From the IMG/VR virus record IMGVR_UViG_3300026118_000019, positions 1 to 64,000 of that record: a DNA stretch of 64,000 nucleotides. One strand, written 5' to 3'. The translations under genes were made by a program, and so were the position numbers. The notes beneath the pieces are model-generated. The model was given only the letters and a program-made list of their open reading frames with translations. It searched no databases and was not told the origin of the DNA. The stretch comes from a virus. Of this stretch, positions 250-38,030 are shown one piece after another (position 1 is the first letter of the stretch; the number at the start of each line of letters is the position of its first letter).

Positions 250-278
250 TTCAGTCGGGGTGGGCCGCGCAGTATAAT
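250..278 (+). promoter_or_regulatory. Putative sigma70-type promoter for the NAD salvage genes
   Basis: A perfect TATAAT lies at 273-278. A weak -35 (TTCAGT, 250-255, 3 of 6 matches) lies 17 bp upstream. It is followed after 49 bp by the ATG of the NadM-Nudix gene with its GGAGG ribosome site at 316-320. It is the only good promoter-like site in the gap 217-327. Confidence 0.5.
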
Positions 279-327
279 TGACACAGCTGACAACCAAATC
301 CGCAACGCTAAGTCTGGAGGTTTACAG

Positions 328-1332
328 ATGCCGAAGACCAGCGATGTGGGCGTTATCGTGGGCCGGTTCCAGGTCCACCAATTCCACGACGCTCACCTCG
401 AACTAATCAATTCGATTTACACTACCCACAAACACACGGTGTTCGTCCTGGGCTTGAGCCAGGCGCGTGTGTCCACGCGCAACCCCCTCGACTTCGAAGC
501 GCGCAAGCAGTTGGTGCTGGCCACCTTCCCGCTGGCCACCGTGTTCTATCTCAAAGACGAGCCGTCGGACGAAGGCTGGTCGACCAAGCTGGATGCGATG
601 CTGGCCGATTACGTCACACCTGCGCAGACGGTGTGTCTGTATGGCGGGCGCGATTCGTTCGTGAGCCACTACAAGGGGCGCTACCCGGTAGAGATTCTCG
701 AACCGCGCGTCTATGTCAGCGGCACTGAGCTGCGCAGGACGATTGCGAAGAGCGTGAAGGGCAGTGAAGACTTTCGCGCGGGCGTTATTTGGGCTGCGTC
801 GAATGGCTACCCCAAGGTGTTCCCGACAGTTGATATTGGCATCTATCGCAACATTGACGCACCGGACGATGGCTTTTCTGACCCAGCACGGTTACCTGTG
901 GCTCGTCGAGAATGGCTCCTCGTGCGAAAGCCGACCGAGAAGTTGTGGCGATTCTGCGGGGGATTCGTGGCTCCGACCGATGTGTCCCTCGAAGCCGCTG
1001 CAACACGTGAAGCGCTCGAAGAGACGGGCGTGACAATTGGGGTGCCGCAATACCAATGGTCAGGGCTCATCGATGATTGGCGTTATCGAGGTGAGGCCGA
1101 CAAGATCATGACGACGTTGTTCACTGCACCGTATGTCTACGGGCCAGTGCGCCCGGCCGACGATGTGTCAGAAGCGCAGTGGTTCAATGCTGGATTGATT
1201 GAGGCGGCTGTCGACCCAGGCATGCTGGATCGCCTGGTGCCGGAGCACCGCCCGTTATGGAAAGAGCTGGTGCGTGCCAGGCTGGTGAACGCCGTGGTGA
1301 CCGACCGTCTGGTGAAGGAGGTGACCAAGTGA
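328..1332 (+). CDS. nadM: Bifunctional NMN adenylyltransferase / Nudix hydrolase
   Basis: The protein has 334 residues. Its N-terminal half is a nucleotidyltransferase of the NadM type, with the signature GRFQVHQFHDAHL near residue 12 (the GRFQPxHxGH motif of the family). This half should join NMN and ATP to give NAD+. The C-terminal half carries a Nudix box ending in REALEETGV near residues 226-234. The first Glu of the canonical box is not conserved, while the catalytic REUxEExGU part is intact. NadM-Nudix fusions are known in bacteria and phages. A GGAGG site lies 7 nt before the ATG. The gene overlaps nadV by 4 nt, so the two enzymes are probably made together. Confidence 0.92.
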   Translation: MPKTSDVGVIVGRFQVHQFHDAHLELINSIYTTHKHTVFVLGLSQARVSTRNPLDFEARKQLVLATFPLATVFYLKDEPSDEGWSTKLDAMLADYVTPAQTVCLYGGRDSFVSHYKGRYPVEILEPRVYVSGTELRRTIAKSVKGSEDFRAGVIWAASNGYPKVFPTVDIGIYRNIDAPDDGFSDPARLPVARREWLLVRKPTEKLWRFCGGFVAPTDVSLEAAATREALEETGVTIGVPQYQWSGLIDDWRYRGEADKIMTTLFTAPYVYGPVRPADDVSEAQWFNAGLIEAAVDPGMLDRLVPEHRPLWKELVRARLVNAVVTDRLVKEVTK

Positions 1333-2801
1333 GACGCAACTTCATCACCAAAACAGATTCCTACAAGTGGACGCACCACGACATGTTGCCCGTGGGCACA
1401 ACGCGCGTGTATTCGTATCTCGAATCACGCGTGGGGGCTGAGCACGAGCTGACGCTGTGGTTCGGGCTGCAATACTACCTGAAAGAATATCTCGAAGGCG
1501 TGGTCGTCACCGCTGAGGATATCGCCGAGGCCAAGGCATTGCACGCGTGGCACCTGCATGGACCGAAGTTCAACGAGGCGGGGTGGCAGCACATTCTGAA
1601 CAAGCACGGCGGACGTTTACCGCTGCGTATCTTGGCCGCGCCAGAAGGATTGTTGATTCCCAGCGGCAATGTGATTATGACGATTGAGAACACCGACCCG
1701 GCGGTGCCCTGGCTGACTAATGCCGTCGAGTCGTTGCTGCTGAAAGTGTGGTATCCGACCACAGTGGCCACCCGGTCATGGGCCACCAAGCAGGATATCT
1801 TGGCGTCACTCGCCAGGACCGGCGGAGAGCCAGCGATGGCTGACTACATGCTGCACGACTTCGGTTATCGAGGCGTCAGCTCAGAAGAGAGCGCGCAAAT
1901 TGGCGGCGCGGCGCACGTCGTGAATTTCAAAGGCACCGACACCTTGGAAGCGCTGCGATTTCTGCAATACTACTATGGGGCCGGGACTGGATTCGCTGAC
2001 AGTGTCGCGGCTTCAGAGCATTCCGTCATGACGTCGTTGGGCACCACAGGCGAGTTGGGCCATGCCTTACATTTAATCGCGGCGCACCCTAATCAGATTC
2101 TGTCGTTGGTGGCCGACTCGTATGACTATTATCGGTTCGTCGAGAAGATGATTGACTCGAAGGAAATTGTCGACCGTTATCATACACAGCTGGTGCTGCG
2201 CCCAGACTCGACCACCACGAACCATCCGACACCAGAAGGCGTGGTCGCATGGACCTTGCACCGACTCGCCGACCGACTAGGGTCAACACAGACTGTCACT
2301 GGTCATCGCGTGGTGCCGTATAAAACGCTGTGGGGCGATGGGCTCGACCCCGCAGAGATTCGAAAGATTCTCTCGGTCGTCGAGACTGAAGGCTTCGCTA
2401 CGCAGAACCTGGTCTTCGGTATGGGCGGCGGATTGCTTCAGAAGGTGAATCGTGACACCGAACGATTTGCGTTGAAATCGTCAGCGCAAGAGCGTGACAA
2501 TGTGTGGCACGCGATTAACAAGATCCCGATGCAGCATGACAAAGCCTCGAAGTCGGGGCGACTTCAGCTGGTGCGCTCGTGGGTGGGGAATCAGTGGAGT
2601 TTCCGCACGGGGCCGGAAGATACGCGAGCGTGGACCTGGGATGATAAAGTGTTGGTGCCCGTGTTCGAGAATGGCATGGTGCTGCGCCAGGAGTTGTTCA
2701 GCGCCATCAAAGCCAGGCCAGTGTTGAAGGCCAAGTGGATCAACGAGCATGAACCGACAACGGCAATGGCAGCTGGCACGGCGAGCGCTGGGGCTGTGTG
2801 A
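1329..2801 (+). CDS. nadV: Nicotinamide phosphoribosyltransferase (NAMPT/NadV)
   Basis: The frame is open from 1257, but I choose the GTG at 1329. It overlaps the nadM stop (GTGA) and has a strong GAAGGAGGTG site just upstream, giving 490 residues, normal for NAMPT. The sequence starts with RRNFITKTDSYKWTHH, typical of the NadV N-terminus. It contains the family stretches HDFGYRGVSS and GTDT (near residues 175 and 200), LVADSYDYY and VLRPDS. It converts nicotinamide and PRPP to NMN. Together with NadM-Nudix it makes a complete nicotinamide-to-NAD+ route, matching the phage NARP2-type pathway that rebuilds NAD+ after host immune depletion. Confidence 0.93.
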   Translation: MRRNFITKTDSYKWTHHDMLPVGTTRVYSYLESRVGAEHELTLWFGLQYYLKEYLEGVVVTAEDIAEAKALHAWHLHGPKFNEAGWQHILNKHGGRLPLRILAAPEGLLIPSGNVIMTIENTDPAVPWLTNAVESLLLKVWYPTTVATRSWATKQDILASLARTGGEPAMADYMLHDFGYRGVSSEESAQIGGAAHVVNFKGTDTLEALRFLQYYYGAGTGFADSVAASEHSVMTSLGTTGELGHALHLIAAHPNQILSLVADSYDYYRFVEKMIDSKEIVDRYHTQLVLRPDSTTTNHPTPEGVVAWTLHRLADRLGSTQTVTGHRVVPYKTLWGDGLDPAEIRKILSVVETEGFATQNLVFGMGGGLLQKVNRDTERFALKSSAQERDNVWHAINKIPMQHDKASKSGRLQLVRSWVGNQWSFRTGPEDTRAWTWDDKVLVPVFENGMVLRQELFSAIKARPVLKAKWINEHEPTTAMAAGTASAGAV

Positions 2802-3075: not shown

Positions 3076-3165
3076 GGAGGAGTTGGGCACAGTCGGCAAG
3101 CCTGCTGGTCCCGAAAACCGGCGTCCTAACCAGACTTGGGAGTTCGACCCTCCCCTCCTCCGCCA
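3076..3165 (+). tRNA. tRNA-Ser(CGA)
   Basis: Acceptor GGAGGAG (3076-3082) pairs with CTCCTCC (3155-3161), followed by G and an encoded CCA. The anticodon stem CTGGT/ACCGG closes the loop CCCGAAA, giving anticodon CGA; position 33 is C instead of the near-universal T. The variable arm is about 16 nt, as in class II tRNA-Ser. The T-arm is GGGAG-TTCGACC-CTCCC. Confidence 0.85.
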
Positions 3166-3195
3166 AACAATTGAATAGGTAAAGGGTGCACGCCG

Positions 3196-3348
3196 ATGCT
3201 CCTGACCATCCTCGTCATTATCCTGATTCTCTGGCTCCTTGGCGCGGTTGGTGGCGTGGGCGGCAATGCCGTGCACCTGCTGCTAGTCGTGGTGGTGGTT
3301 CTTGTGCTCATCAGCCTGTTGGGTGGTGGGGGCATTCATATTCGGTGA
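3196..3348 (+). CDS. Small two-helix membrane protein, lmo0937-like, 50 aa
   Basis: ATG 3196 to TGA 3346-3348 encodes a 50-residue protein. It has two hydrophobic segments, MLLTILVIILILWLLG and HLLLVVVVVLVLISLL, joined by a Gly-rich turn. This pattern matches the widespread lmo0937/DUF5670 small membrane protein family of unknown function. The gene lies inside the tRNA array and its stop is one base before tRNA-Leu(TAA). The ribosome site is weak (AAAGGGTG, 15 to 8 nt before the ATG). Confidence 0.6.
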   Translation: MLLTILVIILILWLLGAVGGVGGNAVHLLLVVVVVLVLISLLGGGGIHIR

Positions 3349-3349
3349 T

Positions 3350-3437
3350 GGCCTTGTGGCGGAACTTGGCAGACGCGCTGGCCTTAAAACCCGGTGCTGC
3401 AAAAAGCGTGTGGGTTCGACTCCCACCAGGGCCACCA
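3350..3437 (+). tRNA. tRNA-Leu(TAA)
   Basis: Acceptor GGCCTTG pairs with CAGGGCC (one G-T), followed by A and CCA. The loop CTTAAAA gives anticodon TAA. The variable arm is long (class II), and the T-arm is GTGGG-TTCGACT-CCCAC. The last anticodon-stem pair (31-39) is a C-C mismatch. Confidence 0.88.
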
Positions 3438-3443
3438 AGATTT

Positions 3444-3530
3444 GCGCTCGTGGCGGAATGGCAGACGCGATGGCTTCAAACACCGTCGTCCTTTTTGGGC
3501 ATCCCGGTTCAAGTCCGGGCGGGCGCACCA
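3444..3530 (+). tRNA. tRNA-Leu(CAA)
   Basis: Acceptor GCGCTCG pairs with CGGGCGC (one T-G), followed by A and CCA. With stem ATGGC/ACCGT the loop is TTCAAAC and the anticodon CAA. As in the preceding tRNA, pair 31-39 is mismatched (C-A). The long variable arm is class II, and the T-arm is CCCGG-TTCAAGT-CCGGG. It lies six bases after tRNA-Leu(TAA). Confidence 0.85.
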
Positions 3531-3636
3531 ACTTCGCCGTCTCCCGGTGAACATTGACAGATGGCTCTGCCCAGTGTCCACCGTTCACTGGTGAAGCGCT
3601 GTCCCTAACACCAGCGTGTGAGACGGTTCGTTTTGT
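3531..3636 (+). other. Spacer in the tRNA array with short palindromes
   Basis: No gene is visible in these 106 bases. CCGTCTC near 3537 and GAGACGG near 3620 are inverted repeats about 80 bp apart. TTCACTGGTGAA (about 3584-3595) is a near-palindrome. TTGACA at about 3554 has no matching -10. The spacer may fold and aid tRNA processing. Confidence 0.3.
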
Positions 3637-3713
3637 CGGCCTGTAGGAGAACTGGCATATCCACCAGCCCGAGGCGCTGGCTTTTGTGGGTTCGACTCCC
3701 ACCAGGCCGACCA
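3637..3713 (+). tRNA. tRNA with anticodon GAG (nominally Leu), class I body
   Basis: Acceptor CGGCCTG pairs with CAGGCCG, followed by A and CCA. The anticodon stem CCAGC/GCTGG is perfect and closes the loop CCGAGGC, so positions 34-36 read GAG. Position 33 is C rather than T. The variable loop is only CTTTT, so the molecule lacks the long arm of a normal tRNA-Leu. It is clearly tRNA-shaped, but its charging identity is uncertain. Confidence 0.7.
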
Positions 3714-3720
3714 GTTTTTC

Positions 3721-3810
3721 GGTGACGTATACCCGTATGGAGCGGGGGCTGCCTGTAGAGCAGTCGTGGCGATGAGCCTACTGTAGGTTCGATTCCTACC
3801 GGCACCACCA
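3721..3810 (+). tRNA. tRNA-Tyr(GTA)
   Basis: Acceptor GGTGACG pairs with CGGCACC with one A-G mismatch, followed by A and CCA. Anticodon stem GCTGC/GCAGT closes the loop CTGTAGA, giving anticodon GTA. The long variable arm is typical of bacterial tRNA-Tyr. The T-arm is GTAGG-TTCGATT-CCTAC. Confidence 0.85.
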
Positions 3811-3860
3811 GTTAGCGACGCGCGACCGTCCATGATCCGTGCCTCGAAAGGAGGTGGGTC

Positions 3861-3929
3861 ATGGATTTCATGTTGTGGTTGATTTCGCTGTTCGAGCCGA
3901 GTCAGTCGACAGTCGTCATCCTCGACTAG
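3861..3929 (+). CDS. Possible 22-aa peptide with a perfect ribosome site
   Basis: AAAGGAGGTG lies just before ATG 3861, and the frame ends at TAG 3927-3929. The peptide begins MDFMLWLISLFEP, a short hydrophobic stretch. It sits between tRNA genes in a GC-rich gap. The ribosome site is among the best in the window, which argues for translation, but a peptide this short could be chance. No family is known to me. Confidence 0.35.
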   Translation: MDFMLWLISLFEPSQSTVVILD

Positions 3930-3982
3930 GTCGCGTGTGAGACACCGCGCCCGCCCGGTGCGCCGGGGCGGGAGAGTTTCGA

Positions 3983-4058
3983 CCGGGCGTAGCAAAATGG
4001 CAAAGCGCCTCGCTCAGAACGAGGAATTATCGGGGTTCGAGTCCCCGCGCCCGGACCA
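3983..4058 (+). tRNA. tRNA with anticodon CAG (nominally Leu), class I body
   Basis: Acceptor CCGGGCG pairs with CGCCCGG, followed by A and CCA. The perfect anticodon stem CCTCG/CGAGG closes the loop CTCAGAA with anticodon CAG. The variable loop is short (AATTAT), unlike normal tRNA-Leu, and the D-stem is weak. The T-arm is CGGGG-TTCGAGT-CCCCG. This is the second class I molecule with a Leu anticodon in the array. Confidence 0.75.
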
Positions 4059-4061
4059 TAT

Positions 4062-4135
4062 TGTCACGTCGTCCAATGGTAGGACGGCAGGCTTTGACCC
4101 TGCAAATGCTGGTTCGAATCCAGCCGTGGCAGCCA
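4062..4135 (+). tRNA. tRNA-Gln(TTG)
   Basis: Acceptor TGTCACG pairs with CGTGGCA, followed by discriminator G and CCA. Stem GCAGG/CCTGC closes the loop CTTTGAC, giving anticodon TTG. The T-arm is GCTGG-TTCGAAT-CCAGC. Confidence 0.9.
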
Positions 4136-4140
4136 AGCTC

Positions 4141-4225
4141 GGAGAGTTCGGATAACGGTATTCCACCGGTTTGCTAAACCGGCGTCCTCACGGGCATGTG
4201 GGTTCGAATCCCACACTCTCCGCCA
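4141..4225 (+). tRNA. tRNA-Ser(GCT)
   Basis: Acceptor GGAGAGT pairs with ACTCTCC, followed by G and CCA. Stem CCGGT/ACCGG closes the loop TTGCTAA, giving anticodon GCT. The variable arm is long, as expected for tRNA-Ser. It closes the array. Confidence 0.9.
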
Positions 4226-27604: not shown

Positions 27605-28081
27605 ATGCCTTTGTTGCCTGCTAGCATCCTTGGGACAGCGGCGGCGAGTTCAGCGAGCCCCGTGTATGTCTCGCCGCTGTCGTCGTCTGCGCCGTCGATT
27701 GGGTCCACCATCACCCTCGCGCAGAATCCCAAGTCGGCGCTCTTTTATCTCAACTTCAATCAGAGCCCGCCTAATTCCTCACAGACGATCAACGTCTATA
27801 TCGAACACTCACCCGATGGTGGGGTGACGTTCGACGACTTTGTGTCGTTCCCTCTCGTAGCGGGCAAAGGCACCCCGGCGGACCAGATTGCTGTGTGGGT
27901 GCGTGACGTTGCGCCATCCAGCAGTGCGATTGTCCGCACGCCCACCACGCGCACGTTGGCGGCAGGCACGGTGCTGCAAGGTCCCGTGGCTCCGGTGTGG
28001 CGCTGTGAAGCGGTCCCGGCGACGAGCTGTTCGTCGAGCCAGGCGTGGCAGATCAACGTTACCGCGCAGATTGGGCAATGA
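27605..28081 (+). CDS. Unknown beta-rich virion protein, 158 aa
   Basis: ATG 27605 is preferred over an upstream in-frame GTG because GTGGAG stands 6-11 nt before it. The protein is Ser/Pro/Thr-rich with strands such as INVYIEHSPDGGVTFDDFV, a pattern seen in head-decoration and fibre proteins. Its stop overlaps the ATG of the portal fusion. Confidence 0.5.
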   Translation: MPLLPASILGTAAASSASPVYVSPLSSSAPSIGSTITLAQNPKSALFYLNFNQSPPNSSQTINVYIEHSPDGGVTFDDFVSFPLVAGKGTPADQIAVWVRDVAPSSSAIVRTPTTRTLAAGTVLQGPVAPVWRCEAVPATSCSSSQAWQINVTAQIGQ

Positions 28082-31000
28082 GCGTCCGGTCCTCAGTCGC
28101 ATTGGCGGTGCGTGCCCTAGCCGACAGGCTGGGGAAACCTTCGTTTGCGGGCACCCCATTCCCAGACGGGGAAGTCAGCAAAGACATCCAACTCACCGGA
28201 GAGCTGGGTGGCACTGGCACATTCAACTTCGGCGGCTTCATTCGGGGAGAAGATTTCAACCCCCAGATGGACGCCCAAACCGCCATCAAGAATCTCGACG
28301 AAATGCGGCGGTCGGATTCACAGGTGCACGCGGCGCTCGAAGTGGTCAAGCAACCTATCCGCACGGCGGATTATGAGTTAGACCCCTCAGACCCAGACGA
28401 CCCCGAAGCCAAAGAAGTCGCCGACTTCGTCAAGTGGTGTCTCTTCGAAGGCATGACCACCACCTGGGATGACGTCATTCGCCAAGCGCTGCTCGAACTA
28501 GACTTCGGCTTCATGCTGTTCGAGAAGGTGTGGACCGTCGCGGAAGACGGTCCTTACGCGGGTCACATCATTCTCTCTAAGCTGGCGGCACGGCCACCAC
28601 GGACAATCTGGCAGTGGTTCACCGACGAAGACGGGGGGCTGATTAGTATCAAGCAGCTGGCTGTCAAAGCGGGCACCTATCAATTTCTCGATGTGCCGGT
28701 CAGCAAGTTGGTGCGCTTCACCTTCCAACAGGAGGGTGACAACTTCACGGGCATCAGCATGCTGCGGTCCGCATATCCGCACTGGCTGATCAAGAAACAG
28801 CTCTATTTGATTGACGCGATTCGCGCGACGCGGTTCGGCGTGGGTATCCCGCGCGCGAAGTTGAAGGCTGGATATAAGCCAACCGAAGACGACCGCAATG
28901 CCATTGCGCTGATGTTGCAGGGGCTGAGCAGTCACCAGCACGCGTATCTGATTGAGCCGGAGCAAATGGAAGTCGACATTCTCATGCCGCAAGGTGTGCA
29001 GGGTGGCGCGCAGTTGCTGCCGTCGATTCAACACCAGAACGAACAGATTACGCGCAACATCCTAGCGCAGTTTCTCGACATGGGCGGGCGGAGCCAGGGC
29101 GGAAGCCGCGCACTCGGCTCGTCAGCCATGGATTTCTTCCTCAACGCCATTGAAAGTATCGCCGACCAAATCTGCGACGTGCTGAACAAGCAGCTCATCA
29201 AAGACCTGGTCGACATGAATTTCGACGTCGCCAAGTATCCGACGTTGCGGCCGGTCGGGATTCACGAGACCGACGTGTCGAGTCTCGCGGCAGCGGCCGG
29301 AGCGCTCGCGGGCGCAGGTCTGCTGACCCCCGACAAGAAGACCGAGAACACCTTCCGGCAAATGCTCAACCTGCCGGAAGTCTCGGAAGAATTGCTGGAG
29401 GGCGTGCAACCAGGAGCCCCAGGCCAGTCGGGCATGCAAATGCCGGTCGGGATACCGGGGATTCCTGGGCAGCCTCCACGACCAGGCCAGACGACAGGCC
29501 AGCCTGGGAAGGCCGCGCCAGCGCCTCCAGCGCCTGCTACAGCGCTGAGGCCCGGCCAGGCCAACACCATGGTCACCGGCCCGACCAAAGCGGTCTCTAC
29601 GGCTACTGGCCCGTCTCTGGCCGTGAAGGCGCAGAACGTCCAGCGGGCGGAATTAGCGGACGGGGAGACGTTCCAGCCGTTGGCTCCGATGACCGTCCCT
29701 GCGGCCACCACCGTGCCGATTGCCGCGTCGACTCTGGCCATGAGCCCGGTCGACGTCGACCAGACACCGAACGCACCGCGTTTCATTGCGCCCCAAAAAC
29801 CGGAATACGTGACTCCAGCCGAAGGTGTCTCCGGACGCCCCATGGTTGTCGAGCCGCCGCAACATCAACCGCCGACGAGCCATGACCCACGCGGGCAGGA
29901 TATGGCGTCGACCAATTGGACCAATGAACTTCCGGCCAGGTCGACGGTGTATCAGACCGAGCCCGCGCGCACGACTATCGCTACCGTGACTCCGGCAGTG
30001 AGCAACGTGCGTGCCCCCATGTCAGCGCGGAGTGCGATTAGTAACATCATCCCAGCGACGGCAACGATTACGACGCAGCCGCACCACCAGGCGCACATGG
30101 CGCGCTCGACGACCGTCTCTTCGGGAGACGGCGGCGAACTGGAGGGTCACTCGTGGAGCGAGGCGGCATTGCCGCCCAACTTCAAGCCGCACGCAGCAGC
30201 GTCGCCAGACCAGAGGATGGGCGGAACGCCGAGCATCAGGGGGACAGCGCCGCACACACACCCGACCGGGCCAGTGGCCTTTACAAGCCGGGCCAAGTCG
30301 AACCTGGACAGCTCGACGTTGTGGAGGGACCCGAGCCCATTGGAACTGCGAGTGCTGGAGCTACGGGAAATCCCGCGCCGTCTCGATACCGAACGCAACG
30401 CCTTGAGAAATACGCTGCTCGCCGTCCGCGAGGAGCAGATTTTGCGTCTCGCGTCGGCAGTCGCTCACGCGCGATCCGGCGACCCGATTAAGCCACCCCT
30501 CGTGGGCAAGATGGCGTCCGATATCGAAAAGGTGATGAAGAGCACCTTCGAATACGGGCATGCCCAAGTGCTCACCGAACTGCGCAAACAAGGGTTCCGG
30601 ACGCGCGGGGCACGCGCCTTCGCGGATTGGAATGAAGACCTGCACCCGCGTGGGTCCGGGGGTCTGTTCACGACAGCGAATGGTGGTGACGGCGGGCACG
30701 TGACGACTGTCACAGCAACGATTGCCAACGAAGCTGGTTCACTAATTCAAAAATCAGAGTCTTCCCATAAAGAGATGGGAATTGTCATTGATCATACTGG
30801 TAACGTCATTGAACGGGCGTCCCAGCGGAGTGCCTACGGCAGCCGAGATATAGGATATCCAAAGAGCTATAGCGCTTTACATACTGCTGATGCCAATTTA
30901 ACGGTGGTGCACACCCACCCGACACAAGTTGGGAACGACGAATACCACGCCACGACGTTCTCAGCCGGTGACTTAAAATTTGCCTTACAACCAGGCGTCG

Positions 31001-34000
31001 GACGCATGGTTGTATTGACTGGAAAAGGTGACCGATTCGAATTTGCCAAGGTGCGACCGAGCGCCATCCCACTAGCTCAAGCAATGGAGAAGACAGCTCG
31101 TAGCATGTTGACTGGTAGTCCAGCACATGATCAAGCTGTGACAAATATGCGTGGGCACGCGATGATGGCTAGGCTTGTTGACGGTGGGCACGTCGATGGC
31201 TATCGCGCGACGTTGACGTCGAAGACAAAAGAAGTGCTCGAACAACAGACTCGGCAATTTGCCAACGACTGGAAGAGGTTAATCCACAATTCTAACGAGA
31301 CGTGGGAAACTCAACTTAGAGGCGAAATCAAATTCGCGGATTTTGACCCAGACCTGCACCCGCGCTCGGATGATGGTAAGTTTACGTCAGGAGGCCCAGA
31401 TGCCGGAGCGCCCGCCGATTCGAAAACCAGTGGAGCTGTCGGAGGAGGAGGAGCTGAGGTATCCGCCCCCGCGTCCAAAGCCGCCCGTCCCAAGCCCAAC
31501 CACGTAACGGCGTCGGTTGCGAACGAATACAACTCGACGCACGGCATGCCGCCGATTGAACACGGCTATGTCGACGTCGACCAGCACAAAGCTGGAACGA
31601 TTGCGGACGCCTACGACAAGCTGCCGGTTGATGACAGCGCCAACCCCGCCGTCCGGATAGCCTACCAAGCGCTGGGCACTGAGATTCAAGCGCAGTGGGA
31701 CTACGCCACCACGAAGGGGATGCACTTCGAGCCCTGGACGAAGGAGGGCCAACCCTATCAGACGTCGGTCGAAATGGCCGACGACGTCCGCGCGAACAAG
31801 CATCTCTACTTCTATACCGGTGGGGAACCGCACCCATTCCTGTCGGAGCCGGACAAGAACGGCCTGTCGCTGAACGATAAGTTCCGCGCGATTCACGACT
31901 ACTTCGGGCATACGGCTGGAGGCTACGGGTTCGGGCCACGCGGGGAAGAGAACGCCTGGCGCGCACACTCGCAGATGTTCTCGCGCGACGCGCGGAAAGC
32001 TATGACGACGGAGACCCGTGGGCAAAATTCCTGGGTCAACTTCGGTCGCCAGAACTACAACCCGGACGGCAGCTACAAAAACATTCCACCGCCGGACCGG
32101 CCCTATGCGGTCCAGAAGGTAGCCATTCTCCCAGACGAGTTCGTCGAGATGCGTGAACGCACTGGTGGCATTGCCTTCGCGTCTCCGAACACCCGTAAGA
32201 CCGCGTTCCCGCACTTGACCGCCAGCGCCAAGCTGTCCGCCCAGTCGGCGGCAGATAAACTCCTCGGCTCCGCGCAGGCTGAAGCGCTCCGCCTCCAGCG
32301 CGCAGGATGGGACGAAGACGAAGTCGAAGACGCCCTGAAAATTCACATGGGCGAGCTGAGCGACGCTGATATCACGCGCATTGCCAACACCGAAGTCAAC
32401 GAGTCGTTTTCGATGGGCCGCGTCGCCGCTGGGAAAGAGTTCCAGGACGAAATCGAGTATGCCGTCTACAGCGCCATCCTCGATAACTCGGTGTGCAAGG
32501 TGTGCGAGGACTTGGACGGTAAGGAGTTCGAAGTCGACAGCGACGACTACGAAGAGAACATGCCGCCGAATCCGAACTGCGAAGGCGGGGACAATTGCCG
32601 GTGCGCGTATATCTACGTGCTGAAGACGCCAGACGAGGATGACGACGTTGAAGCTAGCGACGCAGTGCGCATGGGGGATTGGGACGAAGACCTGCACCCG
32701 CGTGACGATGCAGGGAAGTTCACATTTGTCTCTGGCGGCGGCGCATCCAGCAGCAGTGGCAAAACCGACGCGGAAAAAGAAGCCGACAAGCAACGAGAAG
32801 AAGCGAAACAACAACACTACGCCAAGCAACACGAGGAGTTTGACCGCCTGAAGGGCAACTGGGCACGAATCAACAACGATTTGCTGGACAACATCCATGA
32901 GCCGGACTCGCCAGCGGCCCAAGAGAAGATGAGCCAGCTCCAGGATTTAGTGAAGCAAATGGCGCGTCTCGATGCCGACCCTGGCGGGCTGGAAGGTATC
33001 GGCTTACCTGGTGGCGCGCGGGACGTGGTCATCGTCGGCACTGGGCCTGGGGGAATGGCAGCGGCAATCAACAGCAGCTACGACGGGCTCGATACCTTGG
33101 TGATTGACGCGGATGAACATCCCGGCGGGCAATCGAAGTATTCGAGCCGCGTGGAAAACTACCCTGGGTTCCCGATTGGTGTCACCGGAGCCGACCTCGC
33201 TAAAAACATGCACGAGCAGGCGACGCGTCTCGGAGCCGAAAGCAAACTGGGCGTGAAAGTGGTGAGTCTGACCGTGGACCCGAAGACCCAGCTGAAGACG
33301 CTCACGTTGTCGAACGGCGAAAAGATCGAGGCCCGGTCAGTAGTGATTGCGGGTGGCGTGGAGGCGCGCGCGGTGGCCTTCCCTGGGCATGACGCCAAAG
33401 ACATCTTCTATCTGGACCCCGTGAAGCTGAAGGCCGAAGCGGTCGGTGGCAAACCGACGGTCGTGGTGGGCGGCTCGAACGGCGCGGCGCAGGCCGCGCT
33501 AAGTGTGGCCAAAGAAGACGGCGACGTTTACGTGGTCAGCCGGTCGCCGATTGAAAAGAGCATGAGCGACAACCAAATCACGGCGCTGCGAAGCAATCCG
33601 AAGATTCATATTTTCCAGGACGAAATTCACTCGGTGGAAAAAGATTCGGATGGGAATACCCAGGCCGTCGTGCTGAAGAGCGGTAAACGGCTGGACGCGT
33701 CTGGCGTCGGCATGTTCATCGGCGGGGCTCCGAAAGTGGATTGGCTGCCGAAAGAAATTCAGCTCACCAATGGCAAGGTGCACACGACCAAGGATATGGA
33801 AACCAACATCCCTGGCGTGTTCGCGGTCGGTGACGTTCGTCACGAAGGTGGTGGCCGCATCGGGGTCGCGGTCGGTGACGGTCAGATCGCCGCCCGCAAC
33901 GTGTCGGGATATTTCAGTAAGTTGAAGGCTGAGCAAGGCGGCGGCAAGGGCACCAGTCACATTCAGCAGCACCACATGAAGCCGGGTGACCCTGATGCCA

Positions 34001-34005
34001 AGTAA
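28078..34005 (+). CDS. Portal-MuF fusion with effector modules and a TrxR-like flavoprotein, 1975 aa
   Basis: ATG 28078 overlaps the previous stop. Residues 1-445 are a Mu gp29/DUF935-type portal. Residues 446-770 are a Pro/Thr-rich linker. MuF helices follow at about 775-845 and end at tag 1 (DWNEDLHPR, 850). A JAMM-like module has H945-T-H947-P, S962 and D965. Tag 2 is at 1088. A module with HDYFGH (H1273) comes next. The MuF core resumes at about 1370-1520 with C1473-x2-C1476 and C1507-R-C1509. Tag 3 is at 1534. Residues 1650-1950 are an FAD/NAD(P) reductase with GTGPGG and GVFAVGD that lacks the CxxC of thioredoxin reductase. The protein forms the DNA gate and probably loads enzymes into the head. 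Confidence 0.85.
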   Translation: MSVRSSVALAVRALADRLGKPSFAGTPFPDGEVSKDIQLTGELGGTGTFNFGGFIRGEDFNPQMDAQTAIKNLDEMRRSDSQVHAALEVVKQPIRTADYELDPSDPDDPEAKEVADFVKWCLFEGMTTTWDDVIRQALLELDFGFMLFEKVWTVAEDGPYAGHIILSKLAARPPRTIWQWFTDEDGGLISIKQLAVKAGTYQFLDVPVSKLVRFTFQQEGDNFTGISMLRSAYPHWLIKKQLYLIDAIRATRFGVGIPRAKLKAGYKPTEDDRNAIALMLQGLSSHQHAYLIEPEQMEVDILMPQGVQGGAQLLPSIQHQNEQITRNILAQFLDMGGRSQGGSRALGSSAMDFFLNAIESIADQICDVLNKQLIKDLVDMNFDVAKYPTLRPVGIHETDVSSLAAAAGALAGAGLLTPDKKTENTFRQMLNLPEVSEELLEGVQPGAPGQSGMQMPVGIPGIPGQPPRPGQTTGQPGKAAPAPPAPATALRPGQANTMVTGPTKAVSTATGPSLAVKAQNVQRAELADGETFQPLAPMTVPAATTVPIAASTLAMSPVDVDQTPNAPRFIAPQKPEYVTPAEGVSGRPMVVEPPQHQPPTSHDPRGQDMASTNWTNELPARSTVYQTEPARTTIATVTPAVSNVRAPMSARSAISNIIPATATITTQPHHQAHMARSTTVSSGDGGELEGHSWSEAALPPNFKPHAAASPDQRMGGTPSIRGTAPHTHPTGPVAFTSRAKSNLDSSTLWRDPSPLELRVLELREIPRRLDTERNALRNTLLAVREEQILRLASAVAHARSGDPIKPPLVGKMASDIEKVMKSTFEYGHAQVLTELRKQGFRTRGARAFADWNEDLHPRGSGGLFTTANGGDGGHVTTVTATIANEAGSLIQKSESSHKEMGIVIDHTGNVIERASQRSAYGSRDIGYPKSYSALHTADANLTVVHTHPTQVGNDEYHATTFSAGDLKFALQPGVGRMVVLTGKGDRFEFAKVRPSAIPLAQAMEKTARSMLTGSPAHDQAVTNMRGHAMMARLVDGGHVDGYRATLTSKTKEVLEQQTRQFANDWKRLIHNSNETWETQLRGEIKFADFDPDLHPRSDDGKFTSGGPDAGAPADSKTSGAVGGGGAEVSAPASKAARPKPNHVTASVANEYNSTHGMPPIEHGYVDVDQHKAGTIADAYDKLPVDDSANPAVRIAYQALGTEIQAQWDYATTKGMHFEPWTKEGQPYQTSVEMADDVRANKHLYFYTGGEPHPFLSEPDKNGLSLNDKFRAIHDYFGHTAGGYGFGPRGEENAWRAHSQMFSRDARKAMTTETRGQNSWVNFGRQNYNPDGSYKNIPPPDRPYAVQKVAILPDEFVEMRERTGGIAFASPNTRKTAFPHLTASAKLSAQSAADKLLGSAQAEALRLQRAGWDEDEVEDALKIHMGELSDADITRIANTEVNESFSMGRVAAGKEFQDEIEYAVYSAILDNSVCKVCEDLDGKEFEVDSDDYEENMPPNPNCEGGDNCRCAYIYVLKTPDEDDDVEASDAVRMGDWDEDLHPRDDAGKFTFVSGGGASSSSGKTDAEKEADKQREEAKQQHYAKQHEEFDRLKGNWARINNDLLDNIHEPDSPAAQEKMSQLQDLVKQMARLDADPGGLEGIGLPGGARDVVIVGTGPGGMAAAINSSYDGLDTLVIDADEHPGGQSKYSSRVENYPGFPIGVTGADLAKNMHEQATRLGAESKLGVKVVSLTVDPKTQLKTLTLSNGEKIEARSVVIAGGVEARAVAFPGHDAKDIFYLDPVKLKAEAVGGKPTVVVGGSNGAAQAALSVAKEDGDVYVVSRSPIEKSMSDNQITALRSNPKIHIFQDEIHSVEKDSDGNTQAVVLKSGKRLDASGVGMFIGGAPKVDWLPKEIQLTNGKVHTTKDMETNIPGVFAVGDVRHEGGGRIGVAVGDGQIAARNVSGYFSKLKAEQGGGKGTSHIQQHHMKPGDPDAK

Positions 34006-35413
34006 GAGGCAGCACCTGGCCGAATGGGACGCCCTGGTCGACCGACTCTTTGCACTCGATAGAGAATACCCATACCTCGGCCAAATGATTGACGCCGACG
34101 CCGAGACGGGCGACGAAGAGCGTGAGTTATACGAGGGACAACCACGGGAGGATGATGGGCGCTTCGGCACCGGGAAAGAATCACCGGAACCTACGGGCCA
34201 TGCCAGCGAATTTGCCGGGCTGCTGAAATCCATCAGCAAGCCAGACGCAGGGTTTACCTATCATGCGGTGAGTCACCGCCAGCCGAAGACGGGCTATGCG
34301 CTGTCGATTTACAAGAGCCGTGAACAGCTCCACACGGCCAAGTCGATCACTCCAGCGGACCTGGCCCGCTACGTGCGTAAGAACAGCGACCTGTTGGCGA
34401 AGGGGGATCACTACCTCGGGGCCTGGCACAATCCGAAAGATGATAAAGTCTATTTGGACGTCTCGCGGGTGGTGCGCACCGCGCAGGAGGCTGAACGCCT
34501 CGGGCGCGACCATAACCAAGAAGCCTACTTCGACCTGCACCGTGGGAAGTCCGTAGAAATTTCGAAGCGCAAGCATTCAGACTATGGCCACCAAACCTCG
34601 CCTGTATCTCACCGGCCCAGCGGAGGGCAAACCGACGTTGGAGGATATCCTGGCGCTCTTCCGCAAACTGTCCGGTCGGGAGCCGACGCCGGAGGAAATC
34701 GACGCAGCGAAGGCCGAGCTGGAGAAGTAAGCCTCGGCGACTGGGACGAAAGTCTCCACCCGCGCGAAGACGACGGCAAATTCACCACGGCTGCTGGCGG
34801 TGGTGCCCCCACCGCCGAGCCCCCACCGAAACCTGCGCCCAGCAAGTCCGACGGCACCGACTCCCGGAAGGCCCCCACAGAGAGTGGCGCGTCCGACGAT
34901 GGTCGTGGCACCCAGACTTACGAGTCTCGCCTACACGACGCCGAGCAGTCCATTCGATTCGAGCCCATGGAGCATGCCGTCGTCCTGAAAGCCGACGGGA
35001 CCAAAGTCGCCACGCTCACCAACAATGCCAGGGACTACGTCATCCTGGATAAAGACGAACAGGGGAACACGGTCGACCTGGCCAATGCGGTGCTCACACA
35101 TAATCACCCAGCAGGGTATGGGTTGAGTGTCGACGACGGCATCACAGCGGCCACGCGGAACCTCGCCGAAATGCGCGCGGTGACCAAAGCCCACGGCACC
35201 TTCAGTATCAAACGGCAGGGTGCAACCTGGCCGGAGGATTTCAAAACACGGTTGGAAGTCGCTGACATTCAACAGCGCGCGGAGTTTACCGACGAAATTC
35301 TCAAAGGCACCATCTCGGTCAAAGACGCCAATGACCGCCACCATGACGAAGTCTACAAGAAGGTAGCCAAGCCTGGGGACGTGATTTACACCCACACACC
35401 AAACACACCATGA
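33995..35413 (+). CDS. Two-module effector protein: conserved phage domain and JAMM-like domain
   Basis: ATG 33995 overlaps the end of the portal fusion; an in-frame GTG at 33986 is possible. The product has 472 residues. A degenerate tag (QPREDDGRF) is near residue 50. Residues 70-190 form a conserved phage domain with GYALSIYKSREQ, HYLGAWHN and VYLDVSRVV. Residues about 198-245 are dual-coding with a small ORF and look unlike normal protein. A clear tag, DWDESLHPREDDGKF, is at 249-263. Residues 305-472 are JAMM-like, with H369-N-H371-P, S378 and D380/D381. It is translationally coupled to the next gene. Confidence 0.65.
   Translation: MPSKRQHLAEWDALVDRLFALDREYPYLGQMIDADAETGDEERELYEGQPREDDGRFGTGKESPEPTGHASEFAGLLKSISKPDAGFTYHAVSHRQPKTGYALSIYKSREQLHTAKSITPADLARYVRKNSDLLAKGDHYLGAWHNPKDDKVYLDVSRVVRTAQEAERLGRDHNQEAYFDLHRGKSVEISKRKHSDYGHQTSPVSHRPSGGQTDVGGYPGALPQTVRSGADAGGNRRSEGRAGEVSLGDWDESLHPREDDGKFTTAAGGGAPTAEPPPKPAPSKSDGTDSRKAPTESGASDDGRGTQTYESRLHDAEQSIRFEPMEHAVVLKADGTKVATLTNNARDYVILDKDEQGNTVDLANAVLTHNHPAGYGLSVDDGITAATRNLAEMRAVTKAHGTFSIKRQGATWPEDFKTRLEVADIQQRAEFTDEILKGTISVKDANDRHHDEVYKKVAKPGDVIYTHTPNTP
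34584..34730 (+). CDS. Possible overlapping 48-aa ORF in the +1 frame
   Basis: The ATG at 34584 opens a frame ending at TAA 34728-34730, wholly inside the gene at 33995 but in another frame. The product reads MATKPRLYLTGPAEGKP, then LEDILALFRKLSGREPTPEE, a well-formed amphipathic helix with normal phage composition. The main frame here is Gly, Ser and Arg-rich and poor. Small phage proteins with the ALFxKLTGRxPTPEE pattern are familiar to me. Either both frames are used or the main gene has been disrupted and patched. Confidence 0.5.
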   Translation: MATKPRLYLTGPAEGKPTLEDILALFRKLSGREPTPEEIDAAKAELEK

Positions 35414-37092
35414 AGGACTTGGAACTGCTCATCGACGACCGGGAATTTCGAACACCCATTTACAAGGCGGAAGACTTCGCCATGGGCGACTTTGACCCGG
35501 ACCTGCACCCACGCGACGACGATGGGAAATTCACCACGAGCGGTGGTGGTGGGAGCGCAGCGACACCGAAAGGCGCGAAGAGTGAGCCGAGTCTGCTTGA
35601 TAAATTCGACCGCATCAGGATGCAGCAGAAGATCAAAGACGCATTTGACAGGCTAGAGGCCGAGGCGCAGCGCAATGGTGACGAATCATTCGTCTTTACA
35701 CCAGACGTGGAAAAGGAGCTGCCTGAAATCACCACGGCTCGGGCAACGCGGAAAAGTTATTTGGAACATGTTGCCGAGGAAGTAGCCGCTGTCCATGCGC
35801 AGGCGAAGAAAGACCCATCGTCCCCTGTGTTTTTCCACGGGACGTCGACCGAGGCGCTGTCCCACATCATGAAGGAAGGACTCGTGCCTGCGAAAGGGCA
35901 TGGAGCCGACCAATGGGCTGGGAATGGTTTCAAAGAAGACTACCAAATTGCCGGACGCAACGCGTCGGTCTTCATGACGAAGGACGAGAATTTCGCCAAG
36001 ATGTTCGCACGCGCAGCGGCTGAGGTGACACGGTCAGAACCGGTCGTGCTCAAGGTGACGCTACCACCCAAGGTGGTGAAGTCTCTGGCCCCGGACGAAG
36101 CGTCTCCAGCTGTGGCCTCCTGGCGTTACGAAGGTATCATCCATCCGGACTGGATTAGTAAAGAGCCGATCTACCCTGGCGGCGGTCCAACGCCATCCCG
36201 TTCTGCGGCGCTGGGGTTTGCGGACGCAGGCGACCATTCCTACTATGTCGTGATACTGGTGAAGTCCGCCGCTACGGCCATGGGCGACTGGGACGAAGAC
36301 CTCCACCCACGTGCCGACGACGGGAAGTTCACGTCTGGATTGGGTGGCCCAGACACACATGGGAAATCACCGATTGACAATTCCGACAAGCGCGACCAGA
36401 AGTATGACCCAGATGACGTCGATAAGCGCTACGCTCAAATGCAGAGCGCGAGACAGGAAATTGCGACGGCACTCGGTCATGTTGGGATTGACAATGTGCA
36501 GGTTGCCGATATGCCAACAACCGTTCGCACCGCGCACGTCGCGGCGAATGTCCTCAAAGAGATGAAGGACAAAGGGTATAGGCTGCCAGACTCCGTCAAT
36601 ATTGAAGGTGATTCTGGGGATGATGGAGAGACGGTCCCGAGTGGCGTCACCGTGTCAGACAACCCGAAGTATGGCACCAGCAACCAAGCGCTGACCATCA
36701 AAATTCCAACGGCACTCCCTCCTGACGCTGATTTAGACCGGGCCGTCGCAGTGGCGTATGGTGGGAAAATTCCTGGGACGAAGATTGATAAGTATTCGGC
36801 CCACAACATGCGGGACGTGGTAATACACGAGATGGGCCATGTGCAACATGGCTTTATCTCCTATCCTCAAGCAGTCATTCACGATGCACAGGTCGCCTTT
36901 AAGGCAACGGGCGACACGGAAGATCAAGTAATCGACAAAATCCTGTCGGCTGCCCGCAGCGTCAGCGGCTATGCGGAACATCATCCACAAGAATTTGTGG
37001 CAGAAGCCTTCACCCGCATGTATCGCGGCGAAAAGCTGACCCCTGAAGCTATGAAACTCTACAAAGCAATGAAAGGTCCGGCCATCCAATGA
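35410..37092 (+). CDS. Effector protein: ADP-ribosyltransferase-like and zincin modules
   Basis: The protein has 560 residues. Tag A (DFDPDLHPRDDDGKF) is at 27-41. Residues about 140-290 resemble an ADP-ribosyltransferase fold, with FFHGTSTEAL (H143-G144-T145), a later ASVFMTKDENFAKMFA and a VVLKVTLP strand. The catalytic Glu cannot be fixed by eye. Tag B (DWDEDLHPRADDGKF) is at 293-307. Residues about 330-560 are a zinc metallopeptidase with H473-E-M-G-H477 and a downstream QEFVAEAF (E528/E532) as third ligand candidate. It would modify and cut host proteins if delivered. It is chained by ATGA overlaps to its neighbours. Confidence 0.7.
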   Translation: MKDLELLIDDREFRTPIYKAEDFAMGDFDPDLHPRDDDGKFTTSGGGGSAATPKGAKSEPSLLDKFDRIRMQQKIKDAFDRLEAEAQRNGDESFVFTPDVEKELPEITTARATRKSYLEHVAEEVAAVHAQAKKDPSSPVFFHGTSTEALSHIMKEGLVPAKGHGADQWAGNGFKEDYQIAGRNASVFMTKDENFAKMFARAAAEVTRSEPVVLKVTLPPKVVKSLAPDEASPAVASWRYEGIIHPDWISKEPIYPGGGPTPSRSAALGFADAGDHSYYVVILVKSAATAMGDWDEDLHPRADDGKFTSGLGGPDTHGKSPIDNSDKRDQKYDPDDVDKRYAQMQSARQEIATALGHVGIDNVQVADMPTTVRTAHVAANVLKEMKDKGYRLPDSVNIEGDSGDDGETVPSGVTVSDNPKYGTSNQALTIKIPTALPPDADLDRAVAVAYGGKIPGTKIDKYSAHNMRDVVIHEMGHVQHGFISYPQAVIHDAQVAFKATGDTEDQVIDKILSAARSVSGYAEHHPQEFVAEAFTRMYRGEKLTPEAMKLYKAMKGPAIQ

Positions 37093-38030
37093 GTCTGCCC
37101 TGGCCAAAGTGGTCGACCGAAGAATGGGAGCGCCGCCTTCGGTGGGGCGGTAAAGACGAGGGCTTTCCGTCGCGCGGCGCTGTCGGCCTGGCGGATTGGG
37201 ACGAGAACCTCCACCCCCGCGATGACTTGGGAAAGTTCGCGCCACTCGCTGGCGGAGGCGTGGGTGAAGGCAGTCACGGCGGTGACAAGGTCGGCGAAAC
37301 GACTGCGTATAAACGTCCACCGGTTATCAAAGTCAAGACCGTTGAGGAAGCGGTAGAGCGCATTCTCAAAGGCGAGACCATTGAAATGGAAGACGTGCGG
37401 TCGGTGCACACGGTCCTCAGCAAGCTGGCGGGGATTGCCCAGGAAGCCAAGGCCCTTGGGAAGGATGCGCCGAAATACGATTTGTGCCAGGTCTCCGTGC
37501 CAGGCACCAACCTGTTTTGCGGGTCGGCCCTGCACACGACGGCCTACCCCGAAGGTATCCCGCGCATTGCGATGCCCCAACTGGGTGGCAATCCGGTGCC
37601 TGGGTCGAAAGCCGATAAGCTGCCGCGCACGCCCTGGGACCCGAACGAAGTCAATGCGGCCGACGCCTTCAAGCAGCATCTGAAAGATATCGGGCTCAAG
37701 TTCACCGACGAACAGGCTCCCGCTGCGGCCTTGAAAGCGAGCCAGCACGAGCTAGACGGGCCGAAGGTCGCGGCCATGATGCTCGACAAGCGGTTCGACC
37801 TCGTTAGGAATCCGCTGTTTATTTCCCGTGACAACTATGTCGTTGACGGGCACCATCGATGGGCAGCAGCGGTCGGACGTGACGCGGGCGAGGGACCCTT
37901 CGGCGATTTGAACATGGCAGTCACCCGTATCGACGCGCCGATTTCCGAAGTGCTCCACCTCGCCGAACAGTGGAGCATTGAATTTGGTATCCAGCAGAAA
38001 TCCGTGCCGACGGCGAAAGCAACCAAATGA
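37089..38030 (+). CDS. Effector protein with a ParB-like module, 313 aa
   Basis: A tag, DWDENLHPRDDLGKF, stands at residues 36-50 after a short N-terminus. After a Gly linker comes a helical part. From about residue 130 an alpha-beta module contains CQVSVPGTNLFCG and later NYVVDGHHRWAA (D253-G-H-H-R257). The latter is the nucleotide-binding loop of the ParB/Srx-like superfamily. Such modules are known in phage polyvalent proteins. It overlaps both neighbours by 4 nt. Confidence 0.65.
   Translation: MSLPWPKWSTEEWERRLRWGGKDEGFPSRGAVGLADWDENLHPRDDLGKFAPLAGGGVGEGSHGGDKVGETTAYKRPPVIKVKTVEEAVERILKGETIEMEDVRSVHTVLSKLAGIAQEAKALGKDAPKYDLCQVSVPGTNLFCGSALHTTAYPEGIPRIAMPQLGGNPVPGSKADKLPRTPWDPNEVNAADAFKQHLKDIGLKFTDEQAPAAALKASQHELDGPKVAAMMLDKRFDLVRNPLFISRDNYVVDGHHRWAAAVGRDAGEGPFGDLNMAVTRIDAPISEVLHLAEQWSIEFGIQQKSVPTAKATK

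What the first reader, a model, noticed from the sequence alone, without database searches (positions are those of the whole stretch)
328..2801. Complete two-step NAD+ salvage pathway
NadV and NadM-Nudix together convert nicotinamide to NAD+ via NMN. Phages with this pair (NARP2-type) can rebuild NAD+ destroyed by immune systems such as Thoeris or DSR. The Nudix half might also hydrolyse NAD-derived signals or caps. In this genome the pathway coexists with an ART-like module and two flavoproteins, so NAD(P) may serve attack as well as counter-defence.
Basis: partly seen in the sequence, partly recalled or inferred. Interest (0 to 1): 0.7.

Follow-up and report, generated by a model that had tools for sequence, protein, structure and literature searches.

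The report
Phage NAD+ salvage gene pair
A tailed phage carries two overlapping genes whose enzymes should rebuild the coenzyme NAD+ from nicotinamide, a known way for phages to survive bacterial defences that destroy NAD+; one of the two enzymes is a divergent, shortened version that curated enzyme models do not recognise.

Summary
Window 328-1332 encodes a fused NMN adenylyltransferase-Nudix protein and 1329-2801 a nicotinamide phosphoribosyltransferase (NadV/Nampt). The genes overlap by four bases, each behind a Shine-Dalgarno site, in a tailed-phage record. NadV keeps every NAMPT active-site residue checked and lacks the aromatic clamp of Namat, so it should make NMN: Nampt-like (NARP2-type), not NARP1. 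The fusion protein has the NadM domain order (its only full-length structural matches are NadM), but belongs to a divergent compact subfamily: a two-residue insertion in the catalytic GRFQ...HxxH loop, a linker about 30 residues shorter, scores far below curated NadM cut-offs. The subfamily is widespread and next to NadV in 75 of 80 viral and 74 of 80 bacterial loci, with correlated divergence. Bacterial pairs sit beside an NrtR regulator in 67 of 80 loci, viral pairs in none. NAD+ synthesis from nicotinamide is well supported; the counter-defence role is inferred from published work and untested. Verdict: known pathway, variant enzyme, modest interest.

The parts
316..320 (+). Shine-Dalgarno site GGAGG of the first gene
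   Evidence: Read in the sequence, seven bases before ATG 328
328..1332 (+). nadM-like gene: compact NMN adenylyltransferase-Nudix fusion, 334 aa
   Evidence: Profile match to NadM 2qjt/2r5w E 7e-27 and 2qjo 1.9e-20; AlphaFold model pLDDT 90.5; the only full-length Foldseek hits at the top are NadM structures
328..807 (+). Adenylyltransferase half, about aa 1-160: GRFQ 12-15, H20, H23 (HxxH), S131-T133-R136
   Evidence: Conserved in 60 viral and 42 bacterial nonredundant relatives; boundary approximate from the model
808..1293 (+). Nudix half, about aa 161-322: GG 211-212, R227 E228 E231 E232
   Evidence: Pfam NUDIX 4.1e-11 at aa 196-291; REx2EE conserved; Nudix structures align over 161-322
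1315..1324 (+). Shine-Dalgarno site AAGGAGGTGA of nadV
   Evidence: Read in the sequence, before GTG 1329
1329..2801 (+). nadV: nicotinamide phosphoribosyltransferase (Nampt), 490 aa, GTG start, overlaps the first gene by four bases
   Evidence: NCBIfam PRK09198 463 bits; NAMPT structures E to 4.5e-98; D10, Y12, F178, R181, D204, H231, R291, D293, G336, D337, R375 equal to Xcc NAMPT active-site residues

Best explanation
The two genes are a translationally coupled NAD+ salvage operon of a tailed phage. NadV joins nicotinamide and PRPP to NMN; the adenylyltransferase half of the fusion protein joins NMN and ATP to NAD+. The most likely purpose is to keep NAD+ available during infection, above all when a host NADase defence cleaves NAD+ into nicotinamide and ADP-ribose (a NARP2-type counter-defence). 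The Nudix half most likely hydrolyses ADP-ribose to AMP and ribose-5-phosphate, as in characterised NadM. Shown here: gene presence and intactness, conserved catalytic residues, fold, conserved pairing and co-divergence. Inferred: the enzyme activities, the Nudix substrate and the counter-defence role.
For: NadV keeps all checked NAMPT active-site residues, including the phosphorylated histidine (H231 = Xcc H229) and D204 (= D203, proposed to favour nicotinamide). It lacks the Namat clamp aromatics (G368, K372). The fusion protein's profile and model match only NadM over the full length, with GRFQ, HxxH, SxTxxR and Nudix REx2EE kept. NadV lies near the fusion gene in 75/80 viral and 74/80 bacterial loci (66 and 74 at over 150 bits), and the two proteins co-diverge (Mantel r 0.68, permutation maximum 0.12). 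Bacterial copies sit with NrtR, a known regulator of NAD metabolism, in 67/80 loci. Phage NadV with NadM was already proposed to counter NAD+ depletion (PMC9503650).
Against: No activity was measured. The adenylyltransferase motif is atypical (two extra residues, A for G in HxGH; window F19 where relatives have Leu), and curated NadM models score 18-37 bits against cut-offs near 350-450. Nothing in the window identifies the host or its defences. The same pair in bacterial chromosomes with NrtR serves metabolism, so its presence does not by itself show counter-defence.
Confidence: 0.7

Rival explanations
1. The pair is an auxiliary metabolic operon that raises NAD+ for phage replication in general, with no specific tie to host NADase defences.
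For: Close bacterial relatives are NrtR-linked salvage operons, ten of them with a PRPP-synthase-like gene. NadV is very common in large phages of many hosts (1902 of 50,697 phage records).
Against: Published tests of NARP1 and the cited work on NARP2 tie phage NAD+ synthesis to defence escape. Viral copies lack the NrtR regulator (0 of 80), as expected of genes wanted on throughout infection, though this does not discriminate strongly.
Confidence: 0.25
2. NadV is a Namat-like enzyme that makes NAD+ directly from ADPR-PP (NARP1-like), and the fusion protein does something else.
For: Namat and Nampt are homologous with a shared catalytic core (PMC12774641).
Against: The clamp motif GSX-Phi-X-Phi-X-Phi-TRD is absent: the window reads GGGLLQKVNRD, with G and K at the two adenine-stacking positions, as in Nampt. 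The neighbour is an adenylyltransferase, which NARP1 does not need.
Confidence: 0.03
3. The adenylyltransferase half is inactive or uses another substrate because of its altered catalytic loop, and only NMN production by NadV matters, the host supplying the second step.
For: Two-residue insertion and HxAH in place of HxGH; relative L008 has lost the start of this half while keeping the Nudix half and NadV.
Against: The loop is the same in about 100 divergent relatives with both histidines and the SxTxxR arginine nearly invariant, which argues for retained catalysis. The conserved partner makes NMN.
Confidence: 0.07
4. The Nudix half acts on NAD-derived immune signals or NAD-capped RNA.
For: Nudix metal-binding residues are intact; structural neighbours include NudC and the ADP-ribose-binding NrtR domain.
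Against: The characterised fusion relatives are ADP-ribose pyrophosphatases (titles of 2qjt, 2r5w, 2qjo). No enzyme was known to cleave Thoeris 2'/3'cADPR before RyDEP, which is not a Nudix enzyme. No substrate-specific evidence here.
Confidence: 0.08

Closest known systems
Phage NadV + NadM salvage / NARP2 (KVP40, Lee et al. 2017; Osterman et al. 2024; survey PMC9503650)
   Same: A Nampt and an NMN adenylyltransferase-Nudix fusion in one phage genome; same predicted two-step pathway.
   Different: The fusion protein is a compact divergent subfamily, not the canonical NadM type found in 453 phage records. Here the genes overlap by four bases. The KVP40 and NARP2 papers were not held, so details rest on citing papers and my own knowledge.
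Bifunctional NadM of Francisella and Synechocystis (2r5w, 2qjt, 2qjo)
   Same: Adenylyltransferase then Nudix domain; GRFQ, HxxH, SxTxxR and Nudix residues align.
   Different: About 17-22 % identity; two extra residues in the catalytic loop; about 16 against 48 residues between the halves; model superposes overall at rmsd near 15 A, so relative domain placement may differ.
Compact fusion + NadV pair of Bacteroidota, Kapaibacterium and Ignavibacteria chromosomes or bins
   Same: Same compact fusion protein and NadV, adjacent, same order.
   Different: Bacterial loci carry NrtR (67/80) and in ten cases a PRPP-synthase-like gene; no viral locus has NrtR. The window sits in a supported clade of 41 rows, 38 viral.
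NARP1 (Adps + Namat)
   Same: Phage pathway for NAD+ from breakdown products; Namat is homologous to NadV.
   Different: No Namat clamp in the window NadV; the partner is an adenylyltransferase, not Adps.

Membership tests
NARP2-type phage NAD+ reconstitution | Nampt with intact active site | tested here: met
   All checked Xcc NAMPT residues conserved
NARP2-type phage NAD+ reconstitution | NMN adenylyltransferase encoded by the same phage | tested here: met
   By sequence profile and fold only; activity not tested
NARP2-type phage NAD+ reconstitution | Genes lie in a phage genome | tested here: met
   Terminase, portal-MuF and tape measure in the same 68,260-base record
NARP2-type phage NAD+ reconstitution | Restores NAD+ and overcomes an NADase defence | not testable with these tools
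   Needs expression and phage challenge
Canonical bifunctional NadM (NCBIfam PRK05379 models) | Score above the curated cut-off | tested here: not met
   18-37 bits against cut-offs of about 350-450; therefore called NadM-like, not filed under those models
Canonical bifunctional NadM | GRFQPFHxGH spacing of the catalytic loop | tested here: not met
   GRFQVHQFHDAH: two extra residues and A for G, shared by the whole compact subfamily apart from the A/G choice
Canonical bifunctional NadM | Adenylyltransferase fold followed by Nudix fold | tested here: met
   Six best Foldseek hits are NadM, full length
Nudix hydrolase | REx2EE metal-binding core | tested here: met
   R227 E228 E231 E232; the upstream Glu of the box is V219, a position that varies in the subfamily
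NARP1 Namat | Aromatic adenine clamp GSX-Phi-X-Phi-X-Phi-TRD | tested here: not met
   GGGLLQKVNRD

The most novel reading that the evidence does not exclude
The compact fusion protein and NadV together recycle both halves of NAD+ destroyed by a host NADase: NadV and the adenylyltransferase rebuild NAD+ from nicotinamide, while the Nudix half turns the other product, ADP-ribose, into AMP and ribose-5-phosphate, which refill ATP and PRPP, the two co-substrates of the pathway.
Probability: 0.15. Interest if true: 0.5.

Novelty: new variant of a known kind. Interest (0 to 1): 0.33.

Why it matters
The pathway is known, but this compact adenylyltransferase-Nudix subfamily is missed by curated NadM models and was labelled only 'cytidyltransferase' in the one annotated isolate phage that has it (Tunturi_5). 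It is common in environmental phages (200 stretches confirmed in one scan), so surveys relying on canonical NadM models may undercount phages able to make NAD+ from nicotinamide. NrtR-linked bacterial loci and NrtR-free phage pairs also allow metabolic and viral use of one gene pair to be compared.

Tried and rejected
A viral-contig scan with the NadV sequence alone found nothing (peptide patterns too specific); relatives were reached through the fusion protein. A first structure model from 7 sequences was poor (pLDDT 72) and was replaced by one from 94 sequences. Namat/NARP1 membership was rejected on clamp residues. I asked whether the pair generally lies in tRNA clusters: 19 of 80 viral loci have a tRNA within about 4 kb; in 20 records 102 were seen near the pair against about 33 expected from whole-record counts, but two different programs were compared and a few close relatives drive the excess, so no general claim is made. 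The window's terminase was not found in eight relatives' records, but many are fragments and the tool warns that the empty answer shows nothing. No sigma-70-like promoter beyond chance was found near the pair. ART-like module and second flavoprotein: no confident match in the ORFs scanned, which does not exclude a diverged domain.

Full report
OBSERVATION. The window is the first 64,000 bases of a 68,260-base virus record with a terminase large subunit (PHROG 3.7e-73), a tape measure protein and a portal-MuF protein, so it belongs to a tailed phage. At 328-1332 lies a 334-residue ORF and at 1329-2801 a 490-residue ORF. The second gene's start is best placed at GTG 1329: it follows a perfect AAGGAGGTGA and overlaps the first gene's stop by four bases.

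NADV. The second protein scores 463 bits with NCBIfam PRK09198 (cut-off 405), hits Pfam NAMPT_N and NAPRTase and matches Xanthomonas (Xcc) and vertebrate NAMPT structures at E about 1e-94 to 1e-98. In an alignment of 142 sequences, all residues of the Xcc active site that I checked (D12, Y14, F177, R180, D203, H229, R293, D295, G334, D335, R373) are kept. H229 is the phosphorylated, activity-essential histidine of Xcc NAMPT, and D203 is proposed to favour nicotinamide over nicotinate (PMC10907753). Namat of NARP1 differs from Nampt by an adenine clamp with the motif GSX-Phi-X-Phi-X-Phi-TRD, aromatic at positions 3 and 7 (PMC12774641). The window reads GGGLLQKVNRD, with G368 and K372 at those positions, the same residues the authors used to break the clamp (F392G, Y396K). 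By sequence it is a Nampt. A five-residue insertion after the RPDS motif is shared with a subset of relatives; its meaning is open.

THE FUSION PROTEIN. Single-sequence searches see a Nudix domain (4e-11) and weak NadM similarity (18-37 bits against cut-offs of about 350-450; PDB NadM 1.7e-6). A profile of 94 relatives reaches Francisella NadM at 7e-27 over both domains. An AlphaFold model from that alignment has mean pLDDT 90.5 and pTM 0.81, and its six best Foldseek hits are all bifunctional NMN adenylyltransferase/ADP-ribose pyrophosphatases, aligned full length. The overall rmsd is large (about 15 A over 271-280 residues), which fits two conserved folds in a different relative placement, though domain placement in a model is uncertain. 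Against the characterised enzymes the family has two extra residues in the catalytic loop (GRFQVxxLHx[AG]H instead of GRFQPFHxGH) and about 16 instead of 48 positions between the halves. In 60 viral and 42 bacterial nonredundant members RFQ, both histidines of HxxH, the Arg of SxTxxR and the REx2EE Nudix residues are invariant or nearly so, and the window has all of them. Its own deviations are F19, where nearly all relatives have Leu, and V219 at the upstream Nudix Glu, a position that varies in the family.

PAIRING. In the 80 best viral and 80 best bacterial loci NadV is present near the fusion gene in 75 and 74; two of the five viral exceptions end at the contig edge. With a stricter cut of 150 bits the counts are 66 and 74. 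Over 104 nonredundant pairs the divergences of the two proteins correlate (Mantel r 0.68, permutation maximum 0.12). The loci are related, not independent, samples. The tree puts the window in a supported clade of 41 rows, 38 of them viral, while Bacteroidota-type copies form their own supported groups; the three non-viral rows come from metagenome bins and may themselves be phage. Bacterial pairs are accompanied by an NrtR-like regulator in 67 of 80 loci (NrtR confirmed by Pfam in four), ten by a PRPP-synthase-like gene; no viral locus has NrtR.

MECHANISM. The parsimonious reading is nicotinamide + PRPP to NMN (NadV), then NMN + ATP to NAD+ (fusion protein). For the Nudix half, ADP-ribose hydrolysis is the default from the characterised relatives. 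What the phage gains is not shown by sequence. A published survey proposed that phage NadV with NadM counters NAD+ depletion and found NadV in every NadM-bearing phage (PMC9503650). NARP1 and NARP2 are reported to overcome NADase defences (cited in PMC11984713; PMC12300627). The original KVP40 and NARP2 papers were not held, so statements about them rest on citing papers and my own knowledge. General NAD+ supply cannot be excluded.

CONTEXT CLAIMS. No ART domain was recognised in the neighbouring ORFs.

VERDICT. A real, intact NAD+ salvage pair of a known kind with a variant adenylyltransferase-Nudix enzyme. Interest is modest: the function is predictable and the counter-defence role untested; the fresh element is an under-recognised subfamily that is common in environmental phages and in NrtR-linked bacterial loci. 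I found no paper on this subfamily in the searches made, which is weak evidence of novelty.

Noticed in passing
window 28045-34005 (+): A single 1986-residue ORF joins a Mu-type portal (aa 84-437), a MuF domain (1421-1522) and a C-terminal thioredoxin-reductase-like FAD/NAD(P) domain (1660-1946). A portal-MuF protein carrying a redox flavoenzyme looks unusual.
   Followed up: partly
window 33986-38030 (+): Three large ORFs right after the portal-MuF protein (475, 560 and 313 aa) have no confident Pfam match; the middle one has only sub-threshold hints, among them the NAD-using Tpt1/KptA family (E 0.19).
   Followed up: partly
window 3076-4225 (+): Eight tRNA genes (ARAGORN) lie directly downstream of nadV. 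Several of the nearest viral relatives also have the pair inside a tRNA cluster (L018, L022, L025, L028, L042), but most viral loci do not.
   Followed up: partly
L008 6096-6890: In this relative the start of the adenylyltransferase half is missing and the SxTxxR motif is degenerate, while the Nudix half and the downstream NadV remain: a possible natural loss of one activity.
   Followed up: no
window 2211-2225 (+): NadV aa 295-299: five-residue insertion after the RPDS active-site motif, shared with L018, L022, L024, L025, L042 and others, absent from Xcc, LucasX and KVP40 NadV.
   Followed up: no
window 273-278 (+): A perfect TATAAT hexamer 50 bases before the first gene, without a recognisable -35 box; the promoter scan did not list it.
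   Followed up: no
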